Source: Gilvimarinus gilvus
GTDB lineage: Bacteria > Pseudomonadota > Gammaproteobacteria > Pseudomonadales > Cellvibrionaceae
Assembly: GCF_030518155.1 (NCBI RefSeq)
Contig: NZ_JAULRU010000514.1
Span: forward strand, 1-64,000
Direction: 5' to 3'
DNA length: 64,000 nt
Shown piece by piece: positions 6,160 through 28,264 of the stretch; positions within the stretch are counted from its first letter, which is position 1, and each line of letters starts with the position of its first letter. The translations under genes were made by a program, and so were the position numbers. Below the pieces are notes generated by a model. That model made no database searches. It saw nothing but the letters and a program-made list of their open reading frames with translations, and was not told where the DNA came from.

Positions 6160-6232
6160 GAATGCCATATTAATTACATTATGAAACAGGCCTAACATTT
6201 CATTTATTTCCGGGATTAGCGAACCAAAACAT

Positions 6233-6769: not shown

Positions 6770-6780
6770 CATAAAAAATG

Positions 6781-7074: not shown

Positions 7075-7400
7075 TGGATGACCTTCGCTGTGACCGGTAG
7101 AGGTGTGTCTATTGGGTTTGTTAAAGTGCGCCTGGCTTTCACGGGTAATGACTCACCGGTGGTCATGCAACTGCTCAGCACGATGGGAGTTTTTGCTGAA
7201 TTCGAGCGTGTTTAAATTCTGGGGCGTCAACGCGAAGGCATTGAGCAAGCGCGAGCGGCCGGCAAATATCTCGGCAGGAAATCAGCTCTCAATAAAGATG
7301 CGAAAGCAGAGCACAAGCAACGTGCGAACGCCGGTGAGACCAAATCCGCAATTGCCAAAAAGTTATCGATCCCATTGGTCTTTGTGATTGAGTGCAGCAA
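7075..7400 (+). pseudogene. Remnant of a Tn3-type serine resolvase/recombinase
   Basis: From about 7091 a frame encodes TGRGVSIGFVKVRLAF, then TGNDSPVVMQLLSTMGVF and AEFERV, followed by an in-frame TAA. It then continues as RQREGIEQARAAGKYLGRK and an SAIAKKLSI helix-turn-helix-like tail. This is the C-terminal half of a serine resolvase. The start of the gene is missing or frameshifted near 7080-7090 and the TAA (near 7213) lies in the conserved E-helix. It is a dead relic marking an old transposition event between the defence operon and the peptide cluster. Confidence 0.75.
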
Positions 7401-7518
7401 TCGATGTGGCTTACAGGTGTTGTTAAAAGTAGAGTTTTAGCAAGCTTTCAGGGCGGGCGATAGGCATCCATAGAGCATGAAGAGCTTGTCTAACGTGCAT
7501 AAGGCTGTATCTGTTCAT

Positions 7519-7553
7519 GTATGGGTGGGCAGGGCAGCCCACCCCACCCATAC
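7519..7553 (-). terminator. Strong stem-loop just downstream of the precursor-peptide gene
   Basis: GTATGGGTGGG pairs with CCCACCCATAC (11 bp, perfect), with a small inner GGGC/GCCC pairing in the loop. On the minus strand it begins eight bases after the stop codon of the peptide gene at 7561-7776. No U-tract follows, so it may act mainly by protecting the 3' end of the short message rather than as a classical intrinsic terminator. Confidence 0.5.
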
Positions 7554-7560
7554 AGTCTAG

Positions 7561-7776
7561 TTAATACCAACCACCCGAAGTTATAGGGGGTTGTGGTGGT
7601 TGTGGGTTATATGAGGGGGTGCCTCCACCAATTGTACGATCGCTAGTGGTCATCTTGGACCCCCCAAAAACCAAGGACAACTCGTCGTCTGTTAAACTCA
7701 CTAATTTGGGGCTAGTGTTACCACTCTTAGAGCCCAGTTTACTTTTAAAAGTATCTATTGCATCCAAAAACTTCAT
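7561..7776 (-). CDS. Double-glycine-leader precursor peptide (probable RiPP/bacteriocin precursor)
   Basis: A 71-residue peptide with a textbook GG leader. Counting back from the cleavage site after Gly39, it has Leu at -12, Thr at -11, Glu at -8, Leu at -7, Val at -4 and Gly-Gly at -2/-1 (LTDDELSLVFGG). Peptidase C39 ABC exporters cut such leaders, and one is encoded at 15111-17183. The predicted 32-residue core begins SKMTTSDRT, is rich in Gly, Thr and Ser, contains SYNPQPPQPP and ends SGGWY. A good ribosome-binding site (GGAGAG, six bases before ATG) supports the start, and a strong stem-loop follows the stop. It lies on the minus strand, downstream of the unknown gene and glycosyltransferases. 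Nearby radical SAM, kinase-like and glycosyltransferase genes suggest Tyr/Trp cross-linking or Ser/Thr decoration, which is inference. Confidence 0.75.
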   Translation of the reverse strand: MKFLDAIDTFKSKLGSKSGNTSPKLVSLTDDELSLVFGGSKMTTSDRTIGGGTPSYNPQPPQPPITSGGWY

Positions 7777-9187
7777 ATAATACTCTCCATGATATTAGAT
7801 TTATTCACTGTTAGTTTTGTCTCCTAAGCTCCACCAGTTAATCGTAGAGCCTTGGTACCATACAAAGTCTCGCGGTTGCTTGTCAAGAGCGTTGCTGGTC
7901 ATTAACTTTCATGTCAATGTAAGGTGTTTGTATTGCGTGCATATGGACTTGCTGGATCATTTCTGAGCCAGATTCAAAAGATCTCACTTTTCAAGCAGGT
8001 TGCTCTGTGAAAGCCTTAATATTTGATGCAGATTCCAATGCACTCTTGACTGAAGCTTAAAGGATGAGCGCAGTACTGGGGTGCATAACGGAATCCAAAT
8101 CTGTGTCATTCTTGCTGTTGCCGACAAACTACTTGTATTAAGACTCTGCTTGATTTAGATAATCGACAGTTCAGCATCCCGGCGAACCAAATAAATCTAT
8201 ATAATAGTGTTGGCTGATTGCTTATATTGTTGGCCAATAAGACGTAACACTTTCCGGCTTCATCGTCCGGGTGGCCGATCCGGCGGAATTGGACGGAGAT
8301 TTTGAGTGATAGTCACGCCTGCAGGCTCGTTCGCTTGGTTCGTGGGCGCATCTTTATCCTTAATTGGCTGATGGAGGGGGGGGGGAGCACGATAATCTGC
8401 ATTACCCTTGACGCTTCACTAAGTATATCTCTATATAACAGTCTGAGAAATATGACACGCGTAGTCAGTTTACCCCCTCCTTGTAGATGGCGACAATGCT
8501 CCCCTTTGGAACCACGATTGGTTTTCCTATGTACACTACATGCTTTTACTCGCGGTGATCGCTAGAAGCTTATGATTCAGGGCTACATGTAGTCTTGATG
8601 GAAGCTTTGATTGCGCTAAATCTAACTATGGCGCGTTAGAGGGTCACAGTGCAATGGCGCAGGCGGCTAAAGCGTACAGTGGGTGTGTCCAAGAGAAATT
8701 TGGGCCATGGCGCTTTATGTTTACTGCGGCTCGGTAGCCTGTAGAGCAGGAAGCCATTTAATTGTAGGGGGTATTGTTAACGCGCAATAACGTACACTGA
8801 GAGAGTGGTTTGCTACCAAGGAGAGGAAGAGCTTGAATATTCAGATTTTCGATCATAATCCGCAAACTGCTTCTACCTGAGAGGCGAGCGCGGGTTAGTA
8901 GCTGTGATTTCCTGGCGCTATAGAGTCAAGGTGTCTTAAAAGGAGTGAGAGAATTGGAGGAAGGATTTTGAGCGAATGTGCGGTTTTGCATTGACAGTTT
9001 CAAATATTCAATATGTCACCTCAATATTGCCATGAAAGGGAGTTGTGTCATTGGGTCCGCTTTCGATTCTCCTAATGCTAATTTTCTGGCGGGGTGTGGG
9101 CTAAGTCGACAGTCAGGTTTGAGACAAATCCTAAGTAACTATTGAGGTTTATATTGGTCGCTTGACGAATGTTTTTGATTGGGGGAG
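7777..9187. other. 1.4-kb stretch without a convincing gene
   Basis: I see no frame with a recognisable product on either strand. Short open frames here lack ribosome-binding sites and family features. The stretch contains a run of ten G at 8376-8385 and patches of higher GC (about 8250-8360 and 8640-8990) unlike the AT-rich flanks, so it may be a mosaic of decayed mobile-element sequence. The promoter of the precursor peptide must lie at its left end, just above 7777. A TAATAT sequence about 20 bases above the start codon is a possible -10 element but is not convincing. Confidence 0.4.
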
Positions 9188-10366
9188 TCAGCCAATCGAG
9201 GAAGCTGGATCAGTGCCAAAAAATACTTCAAAATCTTGAGTGGTGATTTTGGTGACACTATTGATGTGCCTATTAGTATTGTTGCAAAGTTTTTTGTTGA
9301 GATTGTTGGTAATCTGAAGAGTTGTGTTTCTGAAAGAGATCCAGCTTTCTGGGTTGAAGCTTTCTTTATTTAAAATTAACTTTGCGAAAATATTTTCTGC
9401 TACAGGTAAGTGGTTATAAGAAAACCAATATCGCATATGAAGTGTCTTGTAAAATGCATGATCTAGTGGGCGGTTGTAGTTTGCCATTTCTATAGACACA
9501 TTGAAATATGAAATGCCAGGAATAGTTAGTATGTTTTCGTTAGAAAGTACTTCTTCTATGGTAAATTTGTGTTTCAATTTTAAGCAAATTAGTCTGGCAG
9601 TTGAATATAGTAAGAACAAAAGCTCCAGTTCATTTACTACTTTTGAATGTCTTACAAGGCCCAAATGATTGCCAGAGTTAATTTCTGATATGATTTTATG
9701 GTTTATTGTTACCATCGAAAGTATATCCCGGATAATTCTTGGCGGTGCTGCGCATACTTCGAATCTCCCAATCAGCAAATTATCTCTATTGGCGATGTCT
9801 AACATGTCATCAATTGATAAATCGGTCAGAGATTCGAGCATAGCCTCAATTTCGTCATTTTCGTTGATTTTGTTAAGTATGTGCCAAGTTAGAGTAATTA
9901 TTCCGTGACAAAATTTTGCGATGGTAGCTAAAGATGATTTTAAGTGAACACAATCATTATTTTGGGGCGTATTGTTCTTTGATATTGTCCAGTAAGAGGA
10001 GTAGCGAAAGCCAATGTATGAAAAAATATTTAATTTTTCAAGTGACGTTAAACTGTTCCATGATGTGTCCATGTCTTTTTCGATGGATACGCATATTTCT
10101 TGTATTTCGCGGTGTATCTCCCTCTGTTGCAGAGAGTATGATTTAAGTGCTCCTCTATTCATAGGGTTTATGTGCAGATGACGAGAGTCTCGAAAGCTAC
10201 ACCTGACATAATCTTTCTTGGGTGGCTTGAAGGAGGGGGAGCGACCTTCAAGAATAGTTCGACCGCTTTCGTCTAATCCATCTATACGAGAGAATATTTG
10301 AAAGCAAGGTCGGTGCCGAAGATAGTCATGCGAAAGCGGGTGGATTGATCGGATGTTTGGTTTCAT
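9188..10366 (-). CDS. Uncharacterised protein of the peptide cluster
   Basis: A 392-residue protein that I do not recognise. It begins MKPNIRSIHPLSHDYLRHRP, is rich in helices in its centre (segments around SLTDLSIDDMLDI and KVVNELELLFLLYSTARL), and has many His, Tyr and Trp residues but no clear catalytic motif. There is no signal peptide, and one moderately hydrophobic helix near residue 265 is not a clear membrane span. It follows the glycosyltransferase gene by 41 bases on the same strand and is the last gene before the precursor peptide, so it is probably part of the modification or immunity machinery. A start at ATG 10366 has AAGGA ten bases upstream. Confidence 0.6.
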   Translation of the reverse strand: MKPNIRSIHPLSHDYLRHRPCFQIFSRIDGLDESGRTILEGRSPSFKPPKKDYVRCSFRDSRHLHINPMNRGALKSYSLQQREIHREIQEICVSIEKDMDTSWNSLTSLEKLNIFSYIGFRYSSYWTISKNNTPQNNDCVHLKSSLATIAKFCHGIITLTWHILNKINENDEIEAMLESLTDLSIDDMLDIANRDNLLIGRFEVCAAPPRIIRDILSMVTINHKIISEINSGNHLGLVRHSKVVNELELLFLLYSTARLICLKLKHKFTIEEVLSNENILTIPGISYFNVSIEMANYNRPLDHAFYKTLHMRYWFSYNHLPVAENIFAKLILNKESFNPESWISFRNTTLQITNNLNKKLCNNTNRHINSVTKITTQDFEVFFGTDPASSIG

Positions 10367-10407
10367 TAAAGTTGGGTCCTTAGGGTGTGGAAGGGATATC
10401 GGAGTAT

Positions 10408-11715
10408 TTATCTTTCGAGGCTTGTTACTATATGGTTGCAGATGTTATTTAAGGAATTCGATTCTCTTGTCTTCTTTGAATAGCAACTTATACTATCTTT
10501 AGTGGGTGTATTTGAGAGCATGTAGGTAATGTCATTCACCGCCTTGTTGATGTCAAAATTTGATGCTGGCTGACTCATCGCAACGCCGATTTCCGATAGC
10601 CGTCTAGCATTATCGAATTGGTCAAATTCTACCGGCCTTATGTATTGAGGAATTCCTGCGTAAAGAGCTTCCGCGCAGGTTCCGATTCCACCATGGTGAA
10701 TAATGGCATCTGACACTAAAAGTAACGGTCTTAGGGGGGTGTAGTTTAATTTCAGGATCTGATCGAATGATGTGCTAAAGGAGGTTTGGTGCTTGGATAA
10801 AAATATTCCTGGTCTTTCGAGTTTTTTTAAAATGACTTCGGCGTCCGAAAAAAATTTGTTTGCTTCTTTGACATTGGTCCCGCATGTGAAAATTATGGGG
10901 TGAGGAAACTTCTTTAAGAAATTTTGTATTTTGTTAGGCAGGGTGGACTCCATGGGTGGGTCCATTACATTGGTAAAGCCTAACGCTCCACAGGTTGGCT
11001 CTGGGTTTGAGGAGGTACAGTTCAGAAGCCATTCTGGAAACAAGCCGATCTCGTCGTAAAGATTGCTGGCCATGAAGCGCATGATTTTGAAATAGCTGAA
11101 ATTTGGTGATGTCGTATTGTTATGAATAATTTTGAGCATCCACTCTACTTGCTTATACATGTGGTATTTCGTTTTGTAACCGAAGATGCTGCGCTTTAGT
11201 CGTGAATTAATGCTTTCATTAGGGAATTTTTTGTATAACCATTTTGTTGTTGTGTCATTAAATTCGTAGTTGCAAGGTGAGAGCGTAAGCTTCAAATATT
11301 TGGTGTTAGTTTCTAAACTGGCCAGCATTGCCCCGTTAACCCTGGCAGGAGAGGCAACCAGAGGCTTGGGTATAGTCTTGAGTAAATCGCGGGTCCGAAC
11401 GTATTCGCGTAGATATGTTGGGACGATATATTCTTGAAATAGGTTTCTATATCTTATACTTGAAGGGTTGGATTCTTCAAGTCGAAGTGATTTCTCATAT
11501 TCAGAAGCACTTCCTGTGGAAATGAATTTTATTGATAGGTCATTGATCTGATCTCGATAAACATCATTGGTAAGTATTATAGGAGTGATTTCGCTTTGCT
11601 TTAGTTGCAAAGATATATCAATAAGGGGGTTTACGTCACCGTGACTTCCCGAGCCTACAAGTACCACACTCGGAGGGCTCTGGTTGGACAAAAAATTGTT
11701 TCTCCTAGTATTCAT
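10408..11715 (-). CDS. GT1-family glycosyltransferase (UGT/MGT type)
   Basis: A 435-residue glycosyltransferase with GT-B fold. The N-terminal VVLVGSGSHGDVNPLIDIS is the acceptor-domain signature of the GT1 family (compare GtfA-like and macrolide glycosyltransferases). The C-terminal domain carries HHGGIGTCAEALYAG and PVEFDQFDNARRL, the nucleotide-sugar donor-binding signature. Such enzymes move a sugar from a nucleotide-diphosphate donor onto a small molecule or peptide. The start at 11715 overlaps the end of the preceding GT2 gene by 11 bases, so the two are translationally coupled. In this cluster the likely acceptor is the peptide product, and the donor may be the UDP-uronic sugar made by the dehydrogenase at 26939-28264. 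Both of these are inferences. Confidence 0.85.
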   Translation of the reverse strand: MNTRRNNFLSNQSPPSVVLVGSGSHGDVNPLIDISLQLKQSEITPIILTNDVYRDQINDLSIKFISTGSASEYEKSLRLEESNPSSIRYRNLFQEYIVPTYLREYVRTRDLLKTIPKPLVASPARVNGAMLASLETNTKYLKLTLSPCNYEFNDTTTKWLYKKFPNESINSRLKRSIFGYKTKYHMYKQVEWMLKIIHNNTTSPNFSYFKIMRFMASNLYDEIGLFPEWLLNCTSSNPEPTCGALGFTNVMDPPMESTLPNKIQNFLKKFPHPIIFTCGTNVKEANKFFSDAEVILKKLERPGIFLSKHQTSFSTSFDQILKLNYTPLRPLLLVSDAIIHHGGIGTCAEALYAGIPQYIRPVEFDQFDNARRLSEIGVAMSQPASNFDINKAVNDITYMLSNTPTKDSISCYSKKTRESNSLNNICNHIVTSLER

Positions 11716-12673
11716 CTGTCTGATGGCTGGTGATGATTTTCTTTAGATGTTTACCTTTTTTTTGCGGGGTTTCTAATCTCATATTCTTTTTGTGTTTCTT
11801 AGAAATGTAATCAATAGAATACCCAAACCTCTCAAGATGATCTATGAGCGGTCTGGCTTTTCTTATATTATTGTTTAGTAGGTGGACCCTAAGTGCCCAA
11901 TAGACTATGTCTATATAGGCATATGGGTGAGCTTTAAAAATATTCAGGTTCTTGTTAATTATCTTCTCATATATGGAGTCCTCAGAGTATCTAGTAAAGT
12001 TCGCCGATAGTCTAGTTTCATGTTTTTCGTTTTTCACTATTGCTATATGCTCTACGGAGCAAACCTTTACTCTATTTCCTATGATTCGGATAAACAAGTC
12101 TGTGTCCTCGCCAACGGGAAGACTTGCATCAAATCCGTTGATGCTTAGAAATATTTTCCTTCTGATGGTGACTCCAAAGGAAATGCCTGCAGTTAATAAT
12201 CTTCTGAGACTCTCTTCTTGAGAAAGGACTCTTCCGCAATATAGATAATTGAACTCGCCGTCGGCTCTCTTGGAGTAGATGCCACCCCAAAATAATGATA
12301 TCGATGGGTTTGACGCCATTTTATTAATAAGTGCATCCAAGTAGCCAGGGTAGACTTCGTCATCGTCATCCAAAAACAATAACCACTTTCCTGAAGCTAA
12401 TTTTGCTCCAATATTTCTTGATTGTGAAACGCCAGTGTTAGTTTTGTTTACTTGGTACTGCAGGGGTGTGCGCGCCCTAATTGAAGTAATTACCCTTGTG
12501 TAGTCTTTGGTTGAGGCGTCGTTTATAACGATTAATTCCGCTAGATAGTCGTACTTAGTAGCGTCTGCTAGGAGGCTCTCAATGCATTTAAGTAACAGTA
12601 GTGGCCTATTGTAAGTAGGAATAATAACCGAAAATTGCGGTTGCTTCTGTCTACGCTTTATTATATTTATCAC
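11705..12673 (-). CDS. GT2-family glycosyltransferase
   Basis: A 322-residue GT-A glycosyltransferase. FSVIIPTYNRPLLLLKCIES, then ELIVINDASTKD and GKWLLFLDDDDEVYPGYL give the canonical GT2 domain with its DxD-type metal site in the first 120 residues. A GEDTDLFIRI segment follows near residue 190. The last 90 residues are helical and basic. It starts with GTG at 12673 and is the first gene of a minus-strand operon of three (GT2, GT1, unknown). No membrane helix is visible, so it acts in the cytoplasm or at the inner leaflet. Its acceptor is unknown; a peptide or an already attached sugar is likely from the context. Confidence 0.88.
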   Translation of the reverse strand: MINIIKRRQKQPQFSVIIPTYNRPLLLLKCIESLLADATKYDYLAELIVINDASTKDYTRVITSIRARTPLQYQVNKTNTGVSQSRNIGAKLASGKWLLFLDDDDEVYPGYLDALINKMASNPSISLFWGGIYSKRADGEFNYLYCGRVLSQEESLRRLLTAGISFGVTIRRKIFLSINGFDASLPVGEDTDLFIRIIGNRVKVCSVEHIAIVKNEKHETRLSANFTRYSEDSIYEKIINKNLNIFKAHPYAYIDIVYWALRVHLLNNNIRKARPLIDHLERFGYSIDYISKKHKKNMRLETPQKKGKHLKKIITSHQTDEY

Positions 12674-13873
12674 GTCAATCTCTTCGAGGATTTGATTTGG
12701 TGCATTTACGCTCTATTGTATTCTCGGTGTTGAGATAAATAAAGTCTGAACTCATTTGGCTCATCTTCATAATGGTCGATTGGATGTGATCAACCAATAA
12801 CTGTTTGACCATATGTCGGTGGAGCTTTGTAACTTGGCGGCATTCAACTCTATGGAGGTTTGCTTGTAACCTCATTATGCCCGCGCCTACAATCCCGTCG
12901 AGAAGCTTTTGTTGGCAGACTGAAGAAGTGGGTCGTATTGTATGGTTGACAAAGTTTGATGGTTCTTAGTATCGTAAACCGTGGGCGCTGGTATTTTCTT
13001 GGGGTTGGTTTAAATAGAGAATAAATAATATAAATACATGGAGGGTTGATGTGAGGTTAATAAGAGTCGTTGGTGCATTTAGAGTCAAGCAAGGTTCATT
13101 AATTGACAAGCCGCCGAGCTAACTTACGAGCAGGCGTGTTTGGTGGGCAAGAATTCAAGACGACTCAGGGGCTAATCCAGGCGGCGTCCCGGGAGCCGCG
13201 GTGAGGGTGTCTATCAGCCCCAAATAACTCCTGGCGGCTGGCGCTGAAAACAGTGAGGGGTGGTCGCCCCGGTTTCCTTTTCGATCTACAGTCCTTAGTG
13301 GCTCAGCTTCGACTCACTGTCGGTAATTCATGGCGTGTGTTTGCAATTTGCACCTATATACGAGCCTTTTTGACGATTCGCACATCCTTACAGGCCCGAA
13401 GGGTTATGGTCACGCGACGATACGAAGTAGTGTTTAAGGGAGGGTGTTCTAATGCCTGCTCCCTTTCGCTATCAATTGGGTTGTTTGTGAATTTTTCATT
13501 TGGCGCGCTTGCACAAGTTGCCGAGATCTAGTTGCATAATGACTGCTAAAGCAGATCTCCTTCTAAGGGGCGTTAGGTTGAGAAGTGTACTACACAGATG
13601 TACTAGTTTTGGACTAAGTTCCACGCCGTGGTGTTTGCTTGAAAATCAAGGGCAACGCCTTCGCTAGTATTGAAGGCTAACATAAAGGAATGATCTGGAC
13701 TGCTTATGTATTTTTGCCGTTGTTATATCCGTTTTGTTTCTTGCTGGTGCTACATTTTGCAGCTCTTGTCCGAACTTAGTAATTAAATTGAAAATATTAA
13801 CAATAACATTCAAAGAAATTCTCTAGTACTTTTCAGAGATTAAGCCTTTTCATAGTTTTGTAGTGTAAAAACA
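12674..13873. other. 1.2-kb divergent intergenic stretch, no convincing gene
   Basis: It lies between the leftward glycosyltransferase operon and the rightward exporter genes, so it must hold the promoters of both. An open frame at 13253-13531 has no recognisable product and sits in a GC-richer patch (about 13130-13560) that contrasts with AT-rich flanks, suggesting inserted or decayed sequence. I could not place a confident -35/-10 pair, operator or second precursor peptide here. Confidence 0.4.
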
Positions 13874-15100
13874 ATGCCTAACGACTTATTTAGATCGGAA
13901 GCCGTTGAGAGCTTCAATGATCGACTAAGTGGCCGCGTGGTTTTATCTCCTTCTCGTGCGGTTACCTCGGTGCTTTTTGCAATTTTGATATTGATCTTAT
14001 TGTTTGTTGTTGCTGCTTTTTTGCTGTCGTATTCCAGCACATCAAATTTAAAAGGCTGGATCACGACCGGAGAGGGCGTGAGTAACATATATGGGCGCAA
14101 TGGCTACAATTTAGTTCAGTTGTATGTAGCCAACGGAGATCTGGTTAATAAGGGCGAGGTTGTAGCGAGAATACAAAAGAATCAGTATTCGGACTACGAC
14201 AAGTTTCTGCATCAGCAATTGGAACAGTTAGAGGTCTTGATTGGCGAAAAGCAGCGAGCGAATGATAAAGAGTTTAATGAATATAGAGGGGAGTTACTGA
14301 AGCAAAGAAAAAAAATTGCAAAAGAAATAGACTTGTTGATTGAAGAGTTGAGTCAACTTTCAGAGGCTGTGACGATCTACGAGGCGGTCAAGTTGGCTAA
14401 CGCTTCTCTTTACGAGAAATCGTTGATTTCCGAGCTGCAATGGGCAAATGTTAAGCGGGAGGAGCTTGGCCTTAATGAGAGAGTTTTGTATAAGCAGCGC
14501 TTGATATCTGAGCGGCGAAGAGAGTTGTCATCATTAAATGTAGAGATTTCTAGGATTGATGGATTAGAGCTTAGAGAAAAGCTAAGTATTAGTTTTAGCT
14601 TGATTGATCTAGCCTCTCAAAACTCATTATTGGGAAGCAGCGAGGGGATTAAAGTAGTTAGCCCTTTAGATGGAGAAGTTATCGCCCTTGATGCAAAAAG
14701 GGGAGATTCTCTAACAAATGAAAATGTTCTGATGTCTATTACAAGGAGAAATTCCCAATACACTATTGAGGCATGGGCCCCTATGCCTGCACTGGAGAAT
14801 CTAAGTTTGGGTCAGGAAGCTCGAGTAGAAATGGATACCTATCCAGCCGAAAAATATGGGTACTTAAAGGCAAGTGTTGTGAGTATCGGAGAAAAGCCTA
14901 CCCTGCCGAGTGATACATTGTTTGCGCCCGTTTCCAGTCGAATTCCAGTATATAAAGTTACCTTGGCATTTAGTGATGTGCCAGAGCTAAATGAAAAGAT
15001 GGAGCTCAAGTTGGGGATGCTCCTTAATGTGAAGGTCGTTCAAAGAAAGCAAAAACTTTATAAATGGGTTGAGCAGTACTTTAAAAAGTTGGGTAAATAA
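13874..15100 (+). CDS. HlyD-family periplasmic adaptor (membrane fusion protein)
   Basis: A 408-residue HlyD/CvaA-like adaptor that links an inner-membrane ABC exporter to an outer-membrane channel. One transmembrane helix lies at about residues 31-55 (VTSVLFAILILILLFVVAAF), after a short cytoplasmic tail. A lipoyl-like half-motif (LYVANGDLVNKGEVVARI) follows, then a long coiled coil (about 110-240) and the second lipoyl half (VVSPLDGEVIALDAKRGDSL). The C-terminal beta-barrel region contains GQEARVEMDTYP. The ATG at 13874 has only a weak ribosome-binding site. The C39 exporter gene starts ten bases after its stop, so the two form an export operon for the GG-leader peptide. Confidence 0.92.
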   Translation: MPNDLFRSEAVESFNDRLSGRVVLSPSRAVTSVLFAILILILLFVVAAFLLSYSSTSNLKGWITTGEGVSNIYGRNGYNLVQLYVANGDLVNKGEVVARIQKNQYSDYDKFLHQQLEQLEVLIGEKQRANDKEFNEYRGELLKQRKKIAKEIDLLIEELSQLSEAVTIYEAVKLANASLYEKSLISELQWANVKREELGLNERVLYKQRLISERRRELSSLNVEISRIDGLELREKLSISFSLIDLASQNSLLGSSEGIKVVSPLDGEVIALDAKRGDSLTNENVLMSITRRNSQYTIEAWAPMPALENLSLGQEARVEMDTYPAEKYGYLKASVVSIGEKPTLPSDTLFAPVSSRIPVYKVTLAFSDVPELNEKMELKLGMLLNVKVVQRKQKLYKWVEQYFKKLGK

Positions 15101-15110
15101 GAATATTAAT

Positions 15111-17183: not shown

Positions 17184-17333
17184 CTTAATTGAGATTGGGT
17201 ATATACAGTTGTAGTTACGTTTACAGAATAGGTAGGAATATTCTTTTACGTTTAATTGCAGGTTCGTTTATGGAAGTTGTTTTGATAATTTTTCGGTATT
17301 TTCAATTAAAATTTATGGCACGATGACGTAAAA

Positions 17334-18305: not shown

Positions 18306-18595
18306 TTGATCAGTCTGCAGGCTAAGTGAGCTCTGAAGGAATAAGAAAGATATCAAGTATTCCAGGACATTAGAAGAATTAGAGAAAGTCAAAGATGATA
18401 AAACTTAGTAATAGTGACAGTTCTATTTGGTTTAAGTTCTTTTATCGCGAGTGCGTTTAAGTATATGCGGGGCGCTATATTCTATTAGCTAGGTATTGAT
18501 AGATTAGCTGTAACAATTTTGAAAATGGGTCTTGTTTTTCGGATTAAAATTTCTGAATTGCGTGACAAAATATGCAAGTTATAAGGAAGGTGGAA
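18306..18595 (+). other. Intergenic region before the radical SAM operon
   Basis: About 290 AT-rich bases with no gene I can support. They separate the nucleotidyltransferase gene from the tightly packed radical SAM to deaminase block and probably hold that block's promoter. I could not settle on one promoter among several AT-rich candidates. Confidence 0.3.
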
Positions 18596-19897
18596 ATGAT
18601 TCGTAGCGGGAAAAAGAAAGAGTTGTCTGGTGAGAATCCATTCTCTAATTTTGTTAGAGCAGATATTCCGGGTCGTTTCAATGAGTTGGATGTATTGATG
18701 CGACAGGAAGATTGGCTGCAAGCAAGTGCTCAGAGTGAGGAGATAATTCCACCATATGAGGTACTAATACATCCGTCTAGTGCATGTAATTTAGCATGTG
18801 CTTGGTGTATTGGCGATCATGTTCCCATTATCGCTAAGAGCGGAAGCCTTATTAACTTAGTTGACGCTTCGAAAACAGCTGAGGAAACCCTTCCAAATAT
18901 CTTGTCTAATGTCCAGAATATGGAATCGCTAATTCAAGGGATTCTGGACTATAAGAAGAAGGTGTCATTCTTGAAGAATGGAAAAATGGTAGAGCGAGAG
19001 TTTGGTATCAATACAATTTCATTTTCTGGACTTATTGGTGAGCCGCTTTCCAGTAAAGCGTCAGTTTTGAAAGCAATGAACATGGCGGTTGAGTCGGGAA
19101 AGCGAGTTGGAATCTTTACCAATGGAGTGCTTATGGATCAGCGGGTGATAGATGTGTTCTCGCGAATTGACTATGTCCATCTCAGTTTAGATGCTTCTAC
19201 TGCAGATGTTTATGGCTGGTTAAAGTTTGGTGATGCAAAAAAGGGAGAGGATAGATTTCACAAGGCTGTTGAAAATCTATCTAAACTTGTGAGTAAGAGA
19301 AACGGAGATCCTTCATCAAGCCTTAGAGTCAATACCTCATTTATTCTTTATCCGGAAAATTATTCTCAAGTGTATGACGCAGCCAAGCTTGTAAAGGAAA
19401 TTGGAGTAGATTGTTTCCGAGTGAAAACCGATAACTCTGGAAGTCGTGTACTGAGTCCAAGTCAGGTTTTAGAGTGTAAAGCCTTGTTGGATAAAATTGA
19501 ACAAGATCTGGTCGATGAAGACTTTGATTTTATTCGAATTCATACTTTTGACAGGGGGGTGGATTTCGATCGAAACTTTTCAAAATGTAGGATTACAGAC
19601 ATGATGGCGGCTGTAGGGTCAGATGGCTGTCTTTATCCATGTAATTACCACCCAAGGCCTGGTGGTCATAATTATGGCAGTGCCGTCGCAAATAGTTTTA
19701 GCGATATTTGGGAGGGGGAGTTGAGATTATCAATGAAGTGTGGAATGCCTAAAATTTGCCCAGATGTATGCGATCCTTTTAAGACGAGGTCAAATGCATT
19801 ACTTGAGCGCTTCGATTCAATTAGCTATGAGGTAGGCCAAGAAAAAGCTTTTGGGTATGTTAAAGCGCTATCGGAGGAATTGAACATTGAGAGATAG
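18596..19897 (+). CDS. Radical SAM enzyme with C-terminal SPASM/twitch-like cysteine cluster
   Basis: A 433-residue radical SAM protein. The CxxxCxxC motif (CNLACAWC, about Cys64/68/71) binds the SAM-cleaving 4Fe-4S cluster. A GLIGEPLSS segment near residue 145 is the GGEP-like SAM contact. The C-terminal region carries further cysteines (CRITD, DGCLYPCNYHP, KCGMPKICPDVCDP) spaced like a SPASM or twitch domain with an auxiliary cluster. Enzymes of this class often modify ribosomal peptides (thioether or C-C cross-links, epimerisation) but also sugars. ATG 18596 is chosen over 18572 because AAGGAAGG sits five bases upstream. The next gene overlaps its 3' end by 11 bases. With a GG-leader precursor nearby, peptide modification is the leading hypothesis. 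Confidence 0.88.
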   Translation: MIRSGKKKELSGENPFSNFVRADIPGRFNELDVLMRQEDWLQASAQSEEIIPPYEVLIHPSSACNLACAWCIGDHVPIIAKSGSLINLVDASKTAEETLPNILSNVQNMESLIQGILDYKKKVSFLKNGKMVEREFGINTISFSGLIGEPLSSKASVLKAMNMAVESGKRVGIFTNGVLMDQRVIDVFSRIDYVHLSLDASTADVYGWLKFGDAKKGEDRFHKAVENLSKLVSKRNGDPSSSLRVNTSFILYPENYSQVYDAAKLVKEIGVDCFRVKTDNSGSRVLSPSQVLECKALLDKIEQDLVDEDFDFIRIHTFDRGVDFDRNFSKCRITDMMAAVGSDGCLYPCNYHPRPGGHNYGSAVANSFSDIWEGELRLSMKCGMPKICPDVCDPFKTRSNALLERFDSISYEVGQEKAFGYVKALSEELNIER

Positions 19898-20321
19898 ATA
19901 TCAAGTATTAGTTTTTTCCTACTTTAAGAAAAAAAGCGGGCTGCGCTATTTAATTTTAAAGCGAAGCGATAACTCGTGTTGGCAGGGAATTGCTGGAGGA
20001 GGCGAGATGAATGAGTCACCTCTAGAGGCCGCAAGGAGAGAGGCCTTTGAAGAGGCTGGGATCCCAATGAATGCTAATTATATTTCACTCGACTCCATGT
20101 GTACCGTTCCAATCAGGTATTTTCCTGAATTAGCATCTACGGACGGTTCCCTCGTTATACCAGAGTATGCATTCGGTGTGGAGTCCAAAACTATGGATGT
20201 ATGCCTTTCGATTGAACACACGGAGTATACTTGGAGCTCATATGAGGAAGCAGTTGATAAGCTTAAGTGGGATAGTAATGTCAATGCACTCTGGGAACTA
20301 CATACCCGTCTTAATCAATAG
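19887..20321 (+). CDS. Nudix hydrolase
   Basis: A 144-residue Nudix protein. The Nudix box (about residues 37-59) begins GGGEMNESPLEAARREAFEE and continues AGI, which fits GX5EX7REUXEEXGU completely. Such enzymes cleave nucleoside diphosphates linked to another group, using Mg2+. The TTG start at 19887 overlaps the end of the radical SAM gene and has GGAGG about ten bases upstream, so translation is coupled. Together with the nucleotidyltransferase and the adenosine-deaminase-like gene it points to a nucleotide-linked intermediate, or to housekeeping of a by-product. The substrate is unknown. Confidence 0.9.
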   Translation: MRDRYQVLVFSYFKKKSGLRYLILKRSDNSCWQGIAGGGEMNESPLEAARREAFEEAGIPMNANYISLDSMCTVPIRYFPELASTDGSLVIPEYAFGVESKTMDVCLSIEHTEYTWSSYEEAVDKLKWDSNVNALWELHTRLNQ

Positions 20322-21320
20322 GTGTATGGTGAAAGGATGAAAGCCTATGTGTCGATTCATGGAATCGTTTTTTCAATCGATAATAAAAATATGCTTCGCT
20401 CTACGAGAGAATTTTTTAGAGGTTGGTTAGACGATGCGCATCAGAATATGTCTGAGCATTGGCAAGTTTGTTTCGGTGAGAATAACAAAGAACCATTAAT
20501 GATCGGTAAAATATTTAGTAATGAAAATTGGTTCTCTAGTGATGATGTGCATGAGGTTCATAATGCTAGTGCGAATATTCGTTATCAAGTAGACCTTAAG
20601 AACAAAAAGCTGTTGGTGAGAGAAAGTTCCGTAAGCCAATCCTTATTGCTTTCTGTAAATAGAATTATTCGATGTGTTGTGTTTTGGGAGTTAATGGCGC
20701 GTGGATGTGTCCCATTTCATGCTGCGTCAGTGTCTAGAGGTGGTAGGTCTGTTTGTGTTTCCGGAAATAAGCACTCAGGAAAAACTACATCTATGCTGAA
20801 TCTATTGAAAACGAAAAAGTTCGACATGCAGGCTAATGATAAAGTTCTACTTCGGTCCGATAATTCCGAATATTTTTGTTTTTCTCTACCAATTTCTGTA
20901 AATGTTAGGCCAGGAACGGCCAATTTGTTTTCCATGAAAGATAGAGCTGACCACTATTATCGATTAAATATGTCTACTTTGGAGTTGTGTAATACATTTG
21001 GGGTAAGGCCTACCTTTAAAACATTCTTACAGGGTTTTATCTATACCACTTATGAGCCTGGAAGTGGGGAGCTAGAAGTCTACAGGATTGAATCTAAGCA
21101 GGAAAGGTTGCGTCAGCTCAAATCTAATCGATTAAGTAATATTTACGGTGATCATGATTTTTGGAAATTTTGTAGTGGCCTTAACCAGCGATTTGTTAAT
21201 AAGTTCTATGAAGATTTTTCAAAGTTGCCTTCTTATAGGGTCATTCAGAGAGACAATACAAGTTCAATATTTGTAGATTTAGTAGAGTCAATGATGGGGT
21301 ATTCGGATGGCAATGTTTAG
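20322..21320 (+). CDS. HPr-kinase-like P-loop protein 1
   Basis: A protein of 327-332 residues resembling the C-terminal kinase domain of HPr kinase/phosphorylase. The P-loop SGNKHSGKTT lies in mid-protein, preceded by a HAASVSRGG strand-turn typical of HprK-like ATPases and followed by an acidic QANDKVLL segment. The N-terminal 140 residues are unassigned. Known relatives in lasso-peptide clusters phosphorylate a C-terminal Ser of the precursor (paeninodin, pseudomycoidin). Here the precursor is not a lasso peptide, so the substrate is open. GTG 20322 directly follows the Nudix stop; ATG 20337 is an alternative start. A second, shorter paralogue is encoded at 24950-25699. Confidence 0.75.
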   Translation: MYGERMKAYVSIHGIVFSIDNKNMLRSTREFFRGWLDDAHQNMSEHWQVCFGENNKEPLMIGKIFSNENWFSSDDVHEVHNASANIRYQVDLKNKKLLVRESSVSQSLLLSVNRIIRCVVFWELMARGCVPFHAASVSRGGRSVCVSGNKHSGKTTSMLNLLKTKKFDMQANDKVLLRSDNSEYFCFSLPISVNVRPGTANLFSMKDRADHYYRLNMSTLELCNTFGVRPTFKTFLQGFIYTTYEPGSGELEVYRIESKQERLRQLKSNRLSNIYGDHDFWKFCSGLNQRFVNKFYEDFSKLPSYRVIQRDNTSSIFVDLVESMMGYSDGNV

Positions 21321-21330
21321 GAGTGGGGGC

Positions 21331-22383
21331 ATGCATACGGAGGGGAGGATGAGTACCTTTTGGCCAAGTTTAAGTGATACTGAGTATAATACATTTAAAG
21401 GCTATTTAGATGATTATCATTCTAAACGAATCCAAATCTATGAGCTTAGAGAACAATTGGTTGATGAGTTCGTTGGAAAACTGGGTGGAGGGCGCGTTGG
21501 TTTTTTCTGCAGTGCAACAAGGGCCTTTGAACTATTATTAGAAAAAATCGGGCTATGCGCTCTAGATGAGGTTATTCTACCGATAAATGTATTCTATTCT
21601 ATTTACTTGGCAGTGGAGAAAAAAGGCTGTCAAATAATTTTAGTTGATACAATGACTAGTTCACAGCTTCCATGTACGAAGTCGATTCTTGAGCGGGTGT
21701 CTGACCGAACCAAGTTAATAGTTTTCCCTCATATGGGAGGGGAGTACGCGGATGTTCTTCCTCTTCTTTCTGGTATCGATAGTTCCGTTTATGTTGTTAG
21801 GGATCTGTGTCAGTCTTATCCGTTTAACGAGTATGACTCGCTTAAGATGCATTCCCGTCTCTACAATTTATTTAGTTTTTCAGGCACTAAGCTGCTTTCT
21901 GCGGGTGAGGGGGGCGGTTTACACTCATATTCAGGCAGTGGTCCCTTTATGGATTACGAAAGTAGGAAAAGTGGAATGGAAAACTACGAGCATAGTAAAT
22001 CTGATCGTCTTAGCTACCTCCAGGAAATATTACTGCTAACACGACTTGTTGGGGGCATTCAAGTGATGAAAGAGCGTAGTCGATTTATAGATGAATATCT
22101 TAGACCAATCAAGCATCATAGGGGTGATCTTTTTGTCAAGGATTCTAATCGAGCCTTCGATTCCAATTATTCTTATGTGTTTACTCTTAACTGTGCGTCT
22201 GATTATCACGAGGCTCAACATCTATTGGATTCAGAAGGGGTAGGGTATCTTGAAGCTAGCCTTTTCGATATGTCAATTTTAAAAAAAGTCGGAGTTGATG
22301 GAAAATTCAAGAACTTTGTTGAGTATTCGACTAGAAGTTTCGTTAACAGTATTTCTTCAGGGTGTATTGAGGGTAAGCGGTGA
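21331..22383 (+). CDS. DegT/DnrJ/EryC1-type PLP enzyme (aminotransferase-like)
   Basis: A 350-residue protein with the layout of sugar aminotransferases of the DegT/DnrJ/EryC1/StrS family. FFCSATRAFELLL fits the PLP-phosphate-binding region, RDLCQSYP takes the place of the usual EDAAQ motif, and LFSFSGTKLLSAGEGG carries the Schiff-base Lys near residue 186. The sequence is divergent, so amino transfer is likely but not certain. Starts at ATG 21331 (AGGAG seven bases upstream) or 21349 (GGAGG five bases upstream) are both well supported. The gene follows the kinase-like gene by ten bases, and the next gene starts within its stop (GTGA). A role in making an amino sugar or an aminated side group is inferred. 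Confidence 0.78.
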   Translation: MHTEGRMSTFWPSLSDTEYNTFKGYLDDYHSKRIQIYELREQLVDEFVGKLGGGRVGFFCSATRAFELLLEKIGLCALDEVILPINVFYSIYLAVEKKGCQIILVDTMTSSQLPCTKSILERVSDRTKLIVFPHMGGEYADVLPLLSGIDSSVYVVRDLCQSYPFNEYDSLKMHSRLYNLFSFSGTKLLSAGEGGGLHSYSGSGPFMDYESRKSGMENYEHSKSDRLSYLQEILLLTRLVGGIQVMKERSRFIDEYLRPIKHHRGDLFVKDSNRAFDSNYSYVFTLNCASDYHEAQHLLDSEGVGYLEASLFDMSILKKVGVDGKFKNFVEYSTRSFVNSISSGCIEGKR

Positions 22384-24953: not shown

Positions 24954-25699
24954 TTATGAGTTATCAGTATAGTTTACTTATGGCCATGTTTAAGGTTGAT
25001 GTGATTTCGTGTATTCCATTGGAAACGATTGGAGACTATTCGATTTATACGGGAAAATATTTAACACAATTAGTTGTGCTTGTTAGGCGGGAATCAGAAG
25101 GGGTTGTGGTAACTGATGGAGAAGAGACTCTATCCATAAAATATTGTAGAAATATTGATATGGCTGTCTATCGTCTTATTCGAAGTATAGTAAGATTGCG
25201 GCTTTTAAAATTTGGTTTCATCGAGTTTCCGGCAGCATGCGTTGAGCTACTTGGTAAAGGTGTATTACTTTTGGGTGCTTCTAAGTCCGGCAAGACTGAG
25301 CTAGTGTTTAATTTGCTGAAGGAGGGGGGGGTAAAGCTTGTCGGAAATGATCTTGTTTATTGTTATCCTGGTACAAGTTTTGTTACATCATTACCCACAT
25401 CTATCGGTGTTCGATATAACACTAAACAAAAATTTAATATTTCTAATATTGGCGAGGATATTGTAACGCGAGGGGAAACTAGGAGTCACTATAAGCCACG
25501 CATTATTTGCAGTATTTTCGAAGTCACGTTTGTTAATGCGTGTAGCGTTGACACTGTAGTAAATTTAAAGAAGGCCAAGAATTGCCGGTTAGATGTTATA
25601 GATCATTATACCTTTGATCACGTGGGGCAAGTGGGTCGAAGTTTGGAATATCGTCACAACTATGATTTTGGTGTTTTGTTAGATGAGTTATTAACGTGA
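24950..25699 (+). CDS. HPr-kinase-like P-loop protein 2
   Basis: A 249-residue protein with the HprK-type core: LLGASKSGKTELVFNLL is the P-loop (about residues 105-121), followed by VKLVGNDLVYCYPG, in the place of the strand carrying the HprK acidic residue. It is shorter than the first paralogue (20322-21320) and similar to it only around the motifs. It may phosphorylate the peptide or a carrier. The GTG start shares its bases with the preceding TGA (GTGA) and the next gene repeats this arrangement. A run of eight G at 25324-25331 lies inside the coding frame. Confidence 0.75.
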   Translation: MIMSYQYSLLMAMFKVDVISCIPLETIGDYSIYTGKYLTQLVVLVRRESEGVVVTDGEETLSIKYCRNIDMAVYRLIRSIVRLRLLKFGFIEFPAACVELLGKGVLLLGASKSGKTELVFNLLKEGGVKLVGNDLVYCYPGTSFVTSLPTSIGVRYNTKQKFNISNIGEDIVTRGETRSHYKPRIICSIFEVTFVNACSVDTVVNLKKAKNCRLDVIDHYTFDHVGQVGRSLEYRHNYDFGVLLDELLT

Positions 25700-26601
25700 T
25701 TGGCAATCCATTTGTTCGATGTAAAAAGGCTGAGTATCACGCGCATGGAATACTAAGTGCTTCAAGGTCTGATATTTTCAAGATCAATCCTGGCGTACTT
25801 GAAGTTAAATCAAGATTTTTAGGCTGGGATGAATTTGAAGATTCAGTTCGAAATCTACTGTCGTCGGCTTGGTGTGTCTCGAACTATTGTTATTATATAA
25901 AAAGTGCTATATCAAATTTAGTTTTAGATAATGTATGTTACGCTGAGCTCTCGTTCGATCTGTCGGATCACCTGACTCTTGGGATTGAGTTCGATTGTTG
26001 GCTCGAGTTGATTTTTCGGGAATGTCAATCTCACGGAGAGTCCATTTTAATTAAACCCGAAATTGGATTGAATGCAAGGCATGGATCTGAATTCTATAGA
26101 CCTTGGTTTGTTGCTGCTTGTGAGTCTGGGGTTTTTCATTCTGTTGACCTGTATGGAAATGTTAATATTGATAGGGCGCTTGAATTTAAGTCGTTTTTTA
26201 CTTTTGCGGAAAGATCAAACCTAAAGAAAAAAGCTCATTTGGGAGAGTTTAATGATTGCGGAAGCTCACTTGAGTTTCTAAAGTTTGTTGCTTTGGACGA
26301 AATTCAGCATGGTGTATCAATACTTAATTCGCCCGTCGGATTTTCCATTCTGAGTAAAAAACGTATACCTCTAAATCTTTCATTGTCGAGTAATATTGCT
26401 CTTGGAGTCGTTTATTCTTTCGAGAGTTACCCGTTCAGGCGCATGTTGGATAAAGACTTGAGTTTTAGATTGTCAACGGACGATTATTTGGTGTTTGGTA
26501 GGTCGATATCAGATGATGCGATGGCTGTATGTCAACTTGGATTGTTGTCTCAACTAGAAATGGAGGCTGTGCTGAGTAAAGGTGTCCCATTGATTCCGTA
26601 G
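25696..26601 (+). CDS. Adenosine-deaminase-like amidohydrolase
   Basis: A 301-residue protein with the ordered motifs of the adenosine/AMP deaminase family: metal-binding YHAHG near residues 14-18, KKKAHLGEF in the position of the His-Ala-Gly-Glu motif, EIQHGVSI with the conserved His, LNLSLSSN in the position of the CPTSN-like segment, and PFRRMLDKD with STDDYLVFG containing the metal-ligand Asp. These would hydrolytically deaminate an adenine-type nucleoside. The sequence is divergent and the substrate may be a nucleoside joined to another moiety. It overlaps the previous gene by GTGA and ends the packed operon. With the nucleotidyltransferase and Nudix genes it suggests nucleoside chemistry in this pathway. 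Confidence 0.8.
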   Translation: MIGNPFVRCKKAEYHAHGILSASRSDIFKINPGVLEVKSRFLGWDEFEDSVRNLLSSAWCVSNYCYYIKSAISNLVLDNVCYAELSFDLSDHLTLGIEFDCWLELIFRECQSHGESILIKPEIGLNARHGSEFYRPWFVAACESGVFHSVDLYGNVNIDRALEFKSFFTFAERSNLKKKAHLGEFNDCGSSLEFLKFVALDEIQHGVSILNSPVGFSILSKKRIPLNLSLSSNIALGVVYSFESYPFRRMLDKDLSFRLSTDDYLVFGRSISDDAMAVCQLGLLSQLEMEAVLSKGVPLIP

Positions 26602-26938
26602 CGCTAGATTTTCGTGACTCCTATTATTCAGATTCGCTCTCTTCTGAGATGTTTAAGAATAGAAGCTATGCATTGAACAATATATTTTGAGGTGTTTAAG
26701 TTATATTTTTATGTTAGTAATGTAAATTTTCTCCGCGCGTGAATGGCCTGCAGTGTAGTTTAGTCGTAGTGTCGAACTCTGTCGGTGGGTTTACTGTGTT
26801 TGTCTTAATTTCATATGTAAATTCCGGAAATGTTTGAATGTTTCGTTAGATGGTTTTGCCCACTGCTATTCTATATGTTGACGTGCCATTTTTAAAATGT
26901 ATGTTTTTCGTGTCCTTGGTTTCAAGTTGGATTGGTTT
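26602..26938 (+). other. Intergenic region before the UDP-sugar dehydrogenase
   Basis: About 340 AT-rich bases with no gene I can support. A separate promoter for the dehydrogenase gene is likely here but cannot be assigned with confidence. No strong terminator follows the deaminase-like gene. Confidence 0.3.
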
Positions 26939-28264
26939 ATGAGTCTTAAAAACAGCGTTGATTGCTTGGAAGTGCTAGAAGATCGTATTCGTAAGCGAGA
27001 GTGCGTTGTTGGCATTTTTGGACTAGGTTACGTGGGGCTTCCACTAGCGATGTGTTTTACTTATGCTGGGGTGAAGGTGGTCGGATTTGACATAGATCCA
27101 AAGAAGATATCAATTTTGTCTGGTGGGAAAAGCTATATTAGTACTGTCTCAGATCTTCAAGTTGCTGAAGCGTTAAATCTAGGTTTTTCTGCCACTAGTG
27201 ATTACAAGGCTGCATCAGAGCTAGATTCCATTTTAATTTGCGTTCCAACGCCTCTTAATCAGTATCGACAACCCGATTTGAGTTTTGTTGAGAAGACGCT
27301 TGACGCTCTTCGTCCTTATATTAGGAAAGGACAAGTGCTAGGTTTAGAGAGTACTACTTGGCCAGGTACCACAGAAGAGGTAGTTGTACCTGCGGTCGAG
27401 TCCACCGGGTTGTCTGTAGGGAGTGATATTGCAGTAGTCTACTCACCAGAACGCGAAGACCCAGGTAATCAAGAATACTCAACTGCTAATATACCGAAAA
27501 TAATTGGTGGTGCAACGTCAAGGTGTTTGAGAGTGGGAAAGGCCCTTTATGAAATAGGCGTTCAGGAGATGGTTGAAGTAAGTTCATTGAAAGTGGCAGA
27601 AATGAGTAAGTTGCTAGAAAACATCCATAGAGCAGTTAATATTGGACTAGTTAACGAAATGAAAATTGTATCAGATAAGATGGGTATCAATATAAATGAA
27701 GTTATTGACGCTGCTTCAACGAAACCGTTCGGCTTTGTACCATATCGACCGGGCCCGGGACTTGGAGGGCACTGCCTTCCGATCGATCCATTTTACTTGG
27801 CGTGGAAAGCACGGGAGTATGGGGTAAATACACGCTTTATAGAATTGGCTGGGGAGATTAACCACTATATGCCTATGTGGGTAATCGAAAAGGTTTCTAG
27901 TGTTCTGAATAATTATGGAAAAGCGATTAAAGGAAGTAGCATATTGGTACTTGGCATTGCATATAAAAAAAATATTAATGATACGCGTGAATCCCCTGCA
28001 ATTGAACTAATTGATCAGCTGAGTAAAATGGGTGCATTGATTTCTTATTCTGATCCTTATGTTCCCAAGTTTCCAAAGAAAAGACGCTATAGTTATTCTC
28101 TTACTTCAGTAGATCTATGCAGTCGTACATTGAGGTCGTTCGATTGTATAGTTATTGCTACCGATCATGATGTATTTGATTATGATCTTATTGAGAAATC
28201 CTCAAATTTTGTAATTGATACTAGAAACCGAATCAATAGAGGGCCTCGGTGCATTCATGCATAG
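26939..28264 (+). CDS. UDP-sugar 6-dehydrogenase of the WbpA type (UDP-N-acetylglucosamine dehydrogenase-like)
   Basis: A 441-residue nucleotide-sugar dehydrogenase oxidising a UDP-hexose to the uronic acid with two NAD+. The NAD-binding start VVGIFGLGYVGLPLAM, CVPTPLNQYRQPDLSFV, LESTTWPGTTEE, SPEREDPGN and the catalytic-Cys motif GPGLGGHCLPIDPF (Cys near 279) match the WbpA subgroup better than UDP-glucose dehydrogenases. Length is complete. The start is taken at ATG 26939; ATG 26897 is also in frame. It is the last gene of the cargo, and its end abuts the truncated SRAP gene. It probably supplies the donor sugar for the glycosyltransferases at 10408-12673. Confidence 0.88.
   Translation: MSLKNSVDCLEVLEDRIRKRECVVGIFGLGYVGLPLAMCFTYAGVKVVGFDIDPKKISILSGGKSYISTVSDLQVAEALNLGFSATSDYKAASELDSILICVPTPLNQYRQPDLSFVEKTLDALRPYIRKGQVLGLESTTWPGTTEEVVVPAVESTGLSVGSDIAVVYSPEREDPGNQEYSTANIPKIIGGATSRCLRVGKALYEIGVQEMVEVSSLKVAEMSKLLENIHRAVNIGLVNEMKIVSDKMGININEVIDAASTKPFGFVPYRPGPGLGGHCLPIDPFYLAWKAREYGVNTRFIELAGEINHYMPMWVIEKVSSVLNNYGKAIKGSSILVLGIAYKKNINDTRESPAIELIDQLSKMGALISYSDPYVPKFPKKRRYSYSLTSVDLCSRTLRSFDCIVIATDHDVFDYDLIEKSSNFVIDTRNRINRGPRCIHA

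What the first reader, a model, noticed from the sequence alone, without database searches (positions are those of the whole stretch)
7561..28264. Undescribed-looking peptide natural-product cluster on an ICE
Seen: a GG-leader precursor, C39 exporter, HlyD adaptor, radical SAM/SPASM enzyme, two HPr-kinase-like proteins, nucleotidyltransferase, Nudix, adenosine-deaminase-like protein, DegT-type enzyme, carbamoyltransferase, APH-fold kinase, two glycosyltransferases, UDP-sugar dehydrogenase and an unknown 392-residue protein. Known: each family occurs in natural-product pathways, but I know of no characterised RiPP class with this combination. Inferred: a peptide cross-linked by the radical SAM enzyme and decorated with phosphate, nucleotide and a carbamoylated sugar, exported after leader removal.
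Basis: partly seen in the sequence, partly recalled or inferred. Interest (0 to 1): 0.92.

Follow-up and report, generated by a model that had tools for sequence, protein, structure and literature searches.

The report
Microcin-like peptide locus with sugar-tailoring operon
A mobile element in a Cellvibrionaceae bacterium carries genes for a small exported peptide beside an unusual set of sugar-, carbamoyl- and phosphate-modifying enzymes, which suggests a peptide that carries a custom-made sugar; the product is unknown and would be worth isolating.

Summary
The window encodes a 71-aa peptide with a canonical double-glycine leader and a Cys-free 32-aa core, a C39 exporter, an HlyD adaptor, two glycosyltransferases, an unknown 392-aa protein, and a tightly packed run rSAM-Nudix-HprK-DegT-carbamoyltransferase-APH-HprK-adenosine deaminase, flanked by a nucleotidyltransferase and a UDP-sugar dehydrogenase.

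The interpretation needs correcting. Two radical SAM enzymes found beside C39 exporters in the same family score 224-299 bits to the XyeB cyclophane-maturase model. The window enzyme scores 21 bits to YhhB and 51 at best to any model; its distant relatives lie mostly in sugar or nucleoside loci. No RRE/PqqD domain was detected. A peptide cross-link is therefore unlikely; a sugar substrate is the better guess.

Relatives of both glycosyltransferases lie beside C39 exporters in this family, several in siderophore-microcin-like loci with MchC/MchD-like genes, which the window lacks.

Best reading: a microcin-type peptide carrying a purpose-built carbamoylated, phosphorylated amino sugar. Outside the window the rSAM-Nudix-HprK trio was seen only as a truncated remnant in one MAG. 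Attachment to the peptide is unproven.

The parts
7561..7776 (-). GG-leader precursor, 71 aa; 39-aa leader, 32-aa Cys-free core SKMTTSDRTIGGGTPSYNPQPPQPPITSGGWY
   Evidence: only strict GG-leader match in the window; no relative found in 144 family genomes, plasmids or viral contigs (27, 26, 44)
9188..10366 (-). unknown 392-aa protein
   Evidence: no family match of note; no relative in 143 family genomes, plasmids or viral contigs; model unusable
10408..11715 (-). GT28 / EryCIII-like glycosyltransferase
   Evidence: PF06722 56.6 bits; relatives beside C39 exporters
11705..12673 (-). GT2 glycosyltransferase
   Evidence: PF00535 93.7 bits; best relatives in MchC/MchD-type loci
13874..15100 (+). 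HlyD-type membrane-fusion protein
   Evidence: PF13437 39 bits
15069..17183 (+). C39 peptidase / ABC exporter (first in-frame start; the true start may lie a little downstream)
   Evidence: PF03412 114, PF00664 97, PF00005 115 bits
17334..18305 (+). nucleotidyltransferase (pol-beta type)
   Evidence: PF01909 23.3 bits, cut-off 21 (8); no PDB match
18572..19897 (+). radical SAM enzyme with SPASM-like C-terminus, probably sugar-acting
   Evidence: PF04055 33.6 bits, SPASM 20.2 below cut-off
19887..20321 (+). Nudix hydrolase
   Evidence: PF00293 40.4 bits
20322..21320 (+). HprK-like P-loop kinase 1 (weak assignment)
   Evidence: TIGR04355 34.6 bits, below cut-off
21307..22383 (+). DegT-type PLP enzyme
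   Evidence: PF01041 66.9 bits
22380..24062 (+). O-carbamoyltransferase (GdmN/NovN/TobZ/NodU kind)
   Evidence: PF16861 214, PF02543 160 bits; PDB GdmN 294 bits
24063..24953 (+). APH-fold kinase
   Evidence: PF01636 30.4 bits
24950..25699 (+). HprK-like P-loop kinase 2 (weak assignment)
   Evidence: PF07475 23.7 bits, below cut-off; similar to kinase 1
25696..26601 (+). adenosine-deaminase-superfamily enzyme
   Evidence: PF00962 71.6 bits
26897..28264 (+). nucleotide-sugar dehydrogenase, nearer UDP-HexNAc than UDP-Glc types
   Evidence: TIGR03026 416.6 bits, above cut-off; UDP-ManNAc-type models 233-235, TuaD 141 bits

Best explanation
A microcin-type locus for a sugar-decorated peptide. The GG-leader precursor is modified, cleaved after Gly39 by the C39 domain and exported through C39/HlyD (outer-membrane partner assumed to be the host's). 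The operon makes the decoration: the dehydrogenase gives a nucleotide-activated uronic-type sugar; the radical SAM enzyme alters that sugar (for example decarboxylation or epimerisation, as BlsE acts on a glucuronyl group); DegT adds an amino group; the carbamoyltransferase and the APH and HprK-like kinases add carbamoyl and phosphate; GT2/GT28 transfer the sugar to the peptide or to a carrier. Nudix and deaminase may act on the nucleotide or on 5'-deoxyadenosine. Shown here: gene content, open frames, packed gene order, GG leader, kinship of the glycosyltransferases to genes beside C39 exporters, kinship of the radical SAM enzyme to those of sugar loci. Inferred: every chemical step, their order and the attachment.
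For: Canonical GG leader beside the genome's only strong C39 match. GT28 relatives: 6 of 40 C39 neighbourhoods; 8 of 14 non-window matches in 20 other genomes lie within 5 kb of a C39 match (93 with 47; biased, six genomes were chosen because GT28 had been seen there). GT2: 5 of 8 examined relatives, the best included, lie in loci with MchC- and/or MchD-like genes. Radical SAM: 48-92 bits to six relatives outside the family (L011, L012, L117, L118, L119, L079), five of them in sugar or nucleoside loci, against 30 and 22 bits to two maturases from C39 loci of the family, which themselves score 224-299 bits to XyeB. rSAM-Nudix-HprK recur in that order in one MAG. Carbamoyltransferase nearest to GdmN, NovN, TobZ among solved structures.
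Against: None of 40 C39 neighbourhoods shares the rSAM/Nudix/HprK/DegT/CarbT/APH/ADA/NTase genes, and the MAG remnant lacks precursor and exporter, so peptide and sugar module are linked only by adjacency in this one window. The precursor lies 6 kb from the exporter on the other strand and has no relative. NCBIfam gives BlsE only 18.5 bits, less than some peptide maturases (CbpB 27.1, MftC 27.1, AlbA 25.8). A PDB profile ranks BlsE (44.0) barely above the peptide enzyme SuiB (40.6), SuiB over a longer stretch, and that profile includes two sugar-locus relatives; the sequence alone and the two-row profile find nothing.
Confidence: 0.43

Rival explanations
1. Two unrelated cargo systems side by side: a plain or simply glycosylated microcin-like peptide with exporter, and an independent sugar- or aminoglycoside-like small-molecule operon in which APH and the nucleotidyltransferase could be self-protection enzymes.
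For: No other locus joins the two sets; MAG remnant without peptide genes; minus-strand and plus-strand halves are separated by 1.2 kb without a recognised gene; L012 and L119 relatives lie in Streptomyces sugar/nucleoside loci.
Against: HlyD, C39, NTase and the run are co-directional with gaps of 150 and 266 bases; similar low G+C throughout.
Confidence: 0.28
2. One reading: the radical SAM enzyme cross-links the core peptide, which is then decorated.
For: GG peptide and C39 exporter in the same locus; core holds W and Y; peptide maturases appear among weak NCBIfam matches.
Against: 21 bits to YhhB against 236-244 for the two family maturases; sugar-locus relatives; no RRE detected by Pfam, which can miss RREs; core lacks Cys.
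Confidence: 0.14
3. A surface-polysaccharide modification locus with the exporter there by chance.
For: UDP-HexNAc-type dehydrogenase, DegT and GT2 are common in such loci; radical SAM relatives L011, L117, L118 look like surface-sugar loci.
Against: No polymerase, flippase or initiating transferase among the proteins scanned in 7.5-28.3 kb; carbamoyltransferase nearest to antibiotic enzymes; GT relatives beside C39 exporters.
Confidence: 0.1

Closest known systems
Class IIb (siderophore) microcins, e.g. MccE492, MccH47
   Same: GG leader, C39 exporter (PCAT) with HlyD, glycosyltransferases, extra genes that make and attach a small molecule
   Different: no MchC/MchD-like gene in the window, no Ser/Gly-rich C-terminus, and a sugar-type enzyme set instead
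Glycocins (sublancin, enterocin F4-9)
   Same: GG leader, C39 exporter, GT2 glycosyltransferase
   Different: no cysteines; dedicated sugar-making operon
Blasticidin S-type nucleoside pathway (BlsE, DegT)
   Same: radical SAM enzyme distantly akin to BlsE next to DegT, with a nucleotide-sugar dehydrogenase
   Different: no cytosylglucuronate synthase match among the proteins scanned; carries a peptide precursor and exporter; similarity to BlsE is weak
XyeB/YhhB cyclophane RiPPs exported by C39
   Same: GG peptide, C39/HlyD, a radical SAM enzyme
   Different: radical SAM enzyme of another kind
Phosphorylated lasso peptides with HprK-type kinases
   Same: HprK-like kinases in a peptide locus
   Different: no lasso B or C protein matched

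Membership tests
GG-leader peptides exported by C39 (class II microcin kind) | double-glycine leader | tested here: met
GG-leader peptides exported by C39 (class II microcin kind) | C39 ABC exporter and HlyD adaptor encoded nearby | tested here: met
GG-leader peptides exported by C39 (class II microcin kind) | antibacterial activity and immunity protein | not testable with these tools
   no immunity gene recognised; activity needs a bench test
Class IIb siderophore microcins | MchC/MchD-type conjugation proteins | tested here: not met
   tblastn of four MchC-like and three MchD-like proteins against the window: nothing below E 0.25 (104)
Class IIb siderophore microcins | Ser/Gly-rich C-terminus (PMC10233263, passages) | tested here: not met
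   core ends PPITSGGWY
XyeB/YhhB-type cyclophane RiPPs | radical SAM enzyme of that family | tested here: not met
   YhhB 21.1 bits, cut-off 445 (12)
Glycocins | paired cysteines in the core | tested here: not met
   no Cys in the 71 residues
Glycocins | glycosyltransferase that acts on the peptide | not testable with these tools
   GT2 and GT28 present; acceptor unknown
BlsE-type sugar radical SAM enzymes | match to the BlsE model | tested here: not met
   18.5 bits, cut-off 400 (12)
BlsE-type sugar radical SAM enzymes | activity on a uronic sugar | not testable with these tools
   needs enzyme assay
Lasso peptides | B protease and C cyclase | tested here: not met
   no match

The most novel reading that the evidence does not exclude
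A new kind of peptide-small-molecule conjugate: a microcin-type ribosomal peptide to which a dedicated operon attaches a radical-SAM-edited, carbamoylated and phosphorylated amino sugar (or nucleoside), in place of the siderophore of class IIb microcins, as uptake signal or warhead, with the 392-aa protein or the nucleotidyltransferase in the role that MchC/MchD play there.
Probability: 0.22. Interest if true: 0.85.

Novelty: new variant of a known kind. Interest (0 to 1): 0.6.

Why it matters
If peptide and module belong together, a ribosomal peptide would carry a sugar as elaborate as those of aminoglycosides or blasticidin-type nucleosides. I recall no such combination among characterised peptides, and four narrow full-text searches returned no paper. 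It would offer enzymes for attaching tailored sugars to peptides and suggests that C39 loci of Cellvibrionaceae exchange their conjugation modules.

Tried and rejected
Peptide cross-linking by the radical SAM enzyme: demoted after comparison with two maturases from C39 loci of the same family (12, 110, 111). Siderophore microcin: no MchC/MchD. Glycocin: no cysteines. Lasso peptide: no B or C protein matched. Viral cargo: no relative of the rSAM, the precursor or the 392-aa protein in viral contigs.

Led nowhere: AlphaFold models of the radical SAM enzyme (pLDDT 47) and the 392-aa protein (pLDDT 33) are too poor, so no fold search was run. The one genome-contig scan used two peptide patterns and returned only the MAG already seen. 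Radical SAM in further genomes: 369 of the class gave only L011 besides the window, 293 of the order none; HprK-1 in 398 of the phylum: none but the window. Plasmid searches with HprK-1, NTase, HprK-2 and the 392-aa protein found nothing. 20 of 26 carbamoyltransferase neighbourhoods in the family were read; besides the query they gave one UGD-like and seven C39/ABC-type hits. The deaminase's best plasmid relative (Devosia) lies in no peptide locus. Similarity of the core to five other GG cores is not convincing: 69, 21, 284, 745 and 28 of 1000 shuffles reach the score. The GT28 tree and the radical SAM tree place the window genes nowhere with support. hhalign of MchC-like proteins against the 392-aa protein, APH and NTase gave probabilities under 1%. 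Promoter- and terminator-like sites are no more frequent than in shuffles. Correction: the table mixed some radical SAM hits into the MchC column; one search recounts it.
Full report
What is there. The window lies on contig C717 of a 4.78-Mb assembly in 852 contigs. On the minus strand: the precursor (7561-7776), a 392-aa protein without relatives, and overlapping GT28 and GT2 genes. On the plus strand: HlyD, C39 exporter, nucleotidyltransferase (150 bases on), then after 266 bases radical SAM, Nudix, HprK-like, DegT, carbamoyltransferase, APH, second HprK-like and adenosine-deaminase genes that overlap or abut, and a nucleotide-sugar dehydrogenase 295 bases further. The HprK-like and nucleotidyltransferase assignments are weak by score.

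Is the precursor real? The leader ends LTDDELSLVFGG; the strict pattern occurs once in the window, 0.23 times on average in 30 Markov simulations, and never there in a precursor-sized ORF. The genome has two C39 matches over Pfam's cut-off, 118.7 bits here and 29.5 bits elsewhere. No relative of the precursor was found in 144 family genomes, plasmids or viral contigs, which leaves the core without comparative support.

What accompanies C39 exporters in this family. Of 143 family genomes, 41 including the window's have a C39 exporter match at E up to 1e-80; I read the best 40 of 60 non-self matches, some on short contigs. With a slightly looser GG pattern, for which no chance control was run, 21 of 40 hold a candidate precursor; 6 of 40 hold a GT28 relative, 3 of 40 a GT2 relative, and none a relative of any other window cargo protein except HlyD and C39 at E up to 1e-4. 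A 571-aa protein in L062 matches plasmid genes annotated MchC or SelO-family. MchC-like genes occur in 11 of 40 loci and MchD-like genes in 10 of those 11 (which corrects). MchD is named from position and recalled resemblance; no model matched it. So loci of the siderophore-microcin kind seem common here, and the window locus is a cousin without that pair: nothing in the window matches these proteins below E 0.25.

The glycosyltransferases fit such loci. GT28: 14 non-window matches in 20 other genomes, 8 of them within 5 kb of a C39 match. The genomes were chosen because they have C39 loci, and six because GT28 had been seen there, so the figure is biased upward. Three further GT28 stretches (L120, L121, L122) show neither precursor nor C39 exporter; a fourth, L123, has both, with MchC- and MchD-like genes. 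GT2: 10 non-self matches at E up to 1e-25 in 142 genomes; 8 were read; 5 of these 8 lie in loci with MchC- and/or MchD-like genes, including the best one (39% identity, L124), and 3 of the 5 lie within 13 kb of a full C39 exporter. The other 3 lie between giant ORFs that look like NRPS genes (L126, by eye), on a short contig (L129) and in a locus without such genes (L130).

What the radical SAM enzyme acts on. Its one close relative is a fragment, 63% identical, followed by Nudix (47%) and HprK-like (32%) genes in the same order in the MAG, with IS3-like transposase ORFs (by eye) nearby. That shows the trio is a unit but says nothing on the peptide. Distant relatives and surroundings: L011 (transketolase halves, GT2), L012 (NAD-epimerase, GHMP kinase, Nudix), L117 (pseudaminic- and neuraminic-type cytidylyltransferases, PfkB, SIS), L118 (heptose epimerase, glycosyltransferases), L119 (blsE with cytosylglucuronate synthase and DegT), and L079 (mixed, with a carbamoyltransferase and several radical SAM genes). 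In one small blastp set the window enzyme scores 92 bits to L011, 82 to L012, 62 and 61 to L118 and L117, 49 and 48 to L079 and L119, 42 to a family protein near two GT28 genes (L120), and 30 and 22 to two radical SAM enzymes beside C39 exporters (L123, L124). Those two score 224 and 299 bits to XyeB and 244 and 236 to YhhB, below the curated cut-offs but far above the window enzyme's 21 bits to YhhB; its best model is a tungsten-cofactor maturase at 51 bits.

Against this: BlsE reaches only 18.5 bits, less than CbpB, MftC or AlbA (26-27 bits), and a PDB profile ranks BlsE (44.0) barely above SuiB (40.6), while the single sequence and the two-row profile find no PDB sequence. I conclude that a sugar or sugar nucleotide is the likelier substrate, not that the enzyme is a BlsE.

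How it may work. The set reads as a route to a modified sugar: dehydrogenase nearer the UDP-HexNAc type, radical SAM step, DegT amination, O-carbamoylation by an enzyme nearest to GdmN, NovN and TobZ among solved structures, phosphorylation by APH and HprK-like enzymes, and transfer by GT2/GT28. Deaminase and Nudix may clear nucleotides or 5'-deoxyadenosine; this is inference, as is the intactness of active sites, judged by eye against recalled motifs. Export and leader removal follow from the families. Attachment to the peptide has no direct evidence; the two-systems rival keeps 0.28.

Literature. Searches for HPr kinase or HprK with radical SAM and RiPP, for carbamoyltransferase with double-glycine and RiPP, and for Cellvibrionaceae with bacteriocin and RiPP returned no paper. 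I saw passages of PMC10233263 and the abstract and outline of PMC3715490; the other papers only in listings.

Verdict. The cluster is real and unusual; reading it as a modified exported peptide is reasonable; the cross-linking claim is not supported; whether peptide and sugar module belong together is the open question.

Noticed in passing
L124 (G030:C109:36000-55999), 4515-18955: Hybrid locus: MchC-like and MchD-like genes, GT2, XyeB-like radical SAM enzyme, HlyD, C39 exporter, a SagD/YcaO-type protein (144 bits) and a weak SagB match side by side; possibly a microcin with azole, cyclophane and conjugate chemistry.
   Followed up: partly
L062 and L127 (G132): GG precursors with poly-Ser tails ending GGA beside MchC/MchD-like genes, GT28, GT2 and a tryptophan halogenase.
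   Followed up: partly
L039-L078: MchC-like genes in 11 of 40 C39 neighbourhoods of Cellvibrionaceae: siderophore-microcin-like loci seem common in this family.
   Followed up: partly
L057, L058, L061: GG precursors whose cores are tandem TTLAxGEEGG-like repeats, in three genomes.
   Followed up: no
window 202-1602: Topoisomerase gene split into two ORFs (202-828 and 916-1602) that match successive parts of PF01131.
   Followed up: no
   Followed up: no
window 30509-33153 and 41677-44091: Mrr-type endonuclease, pPIWI-associating nuclease domain and AAA_13 ATPase: perhaps defence cargo.
   Followed up: no
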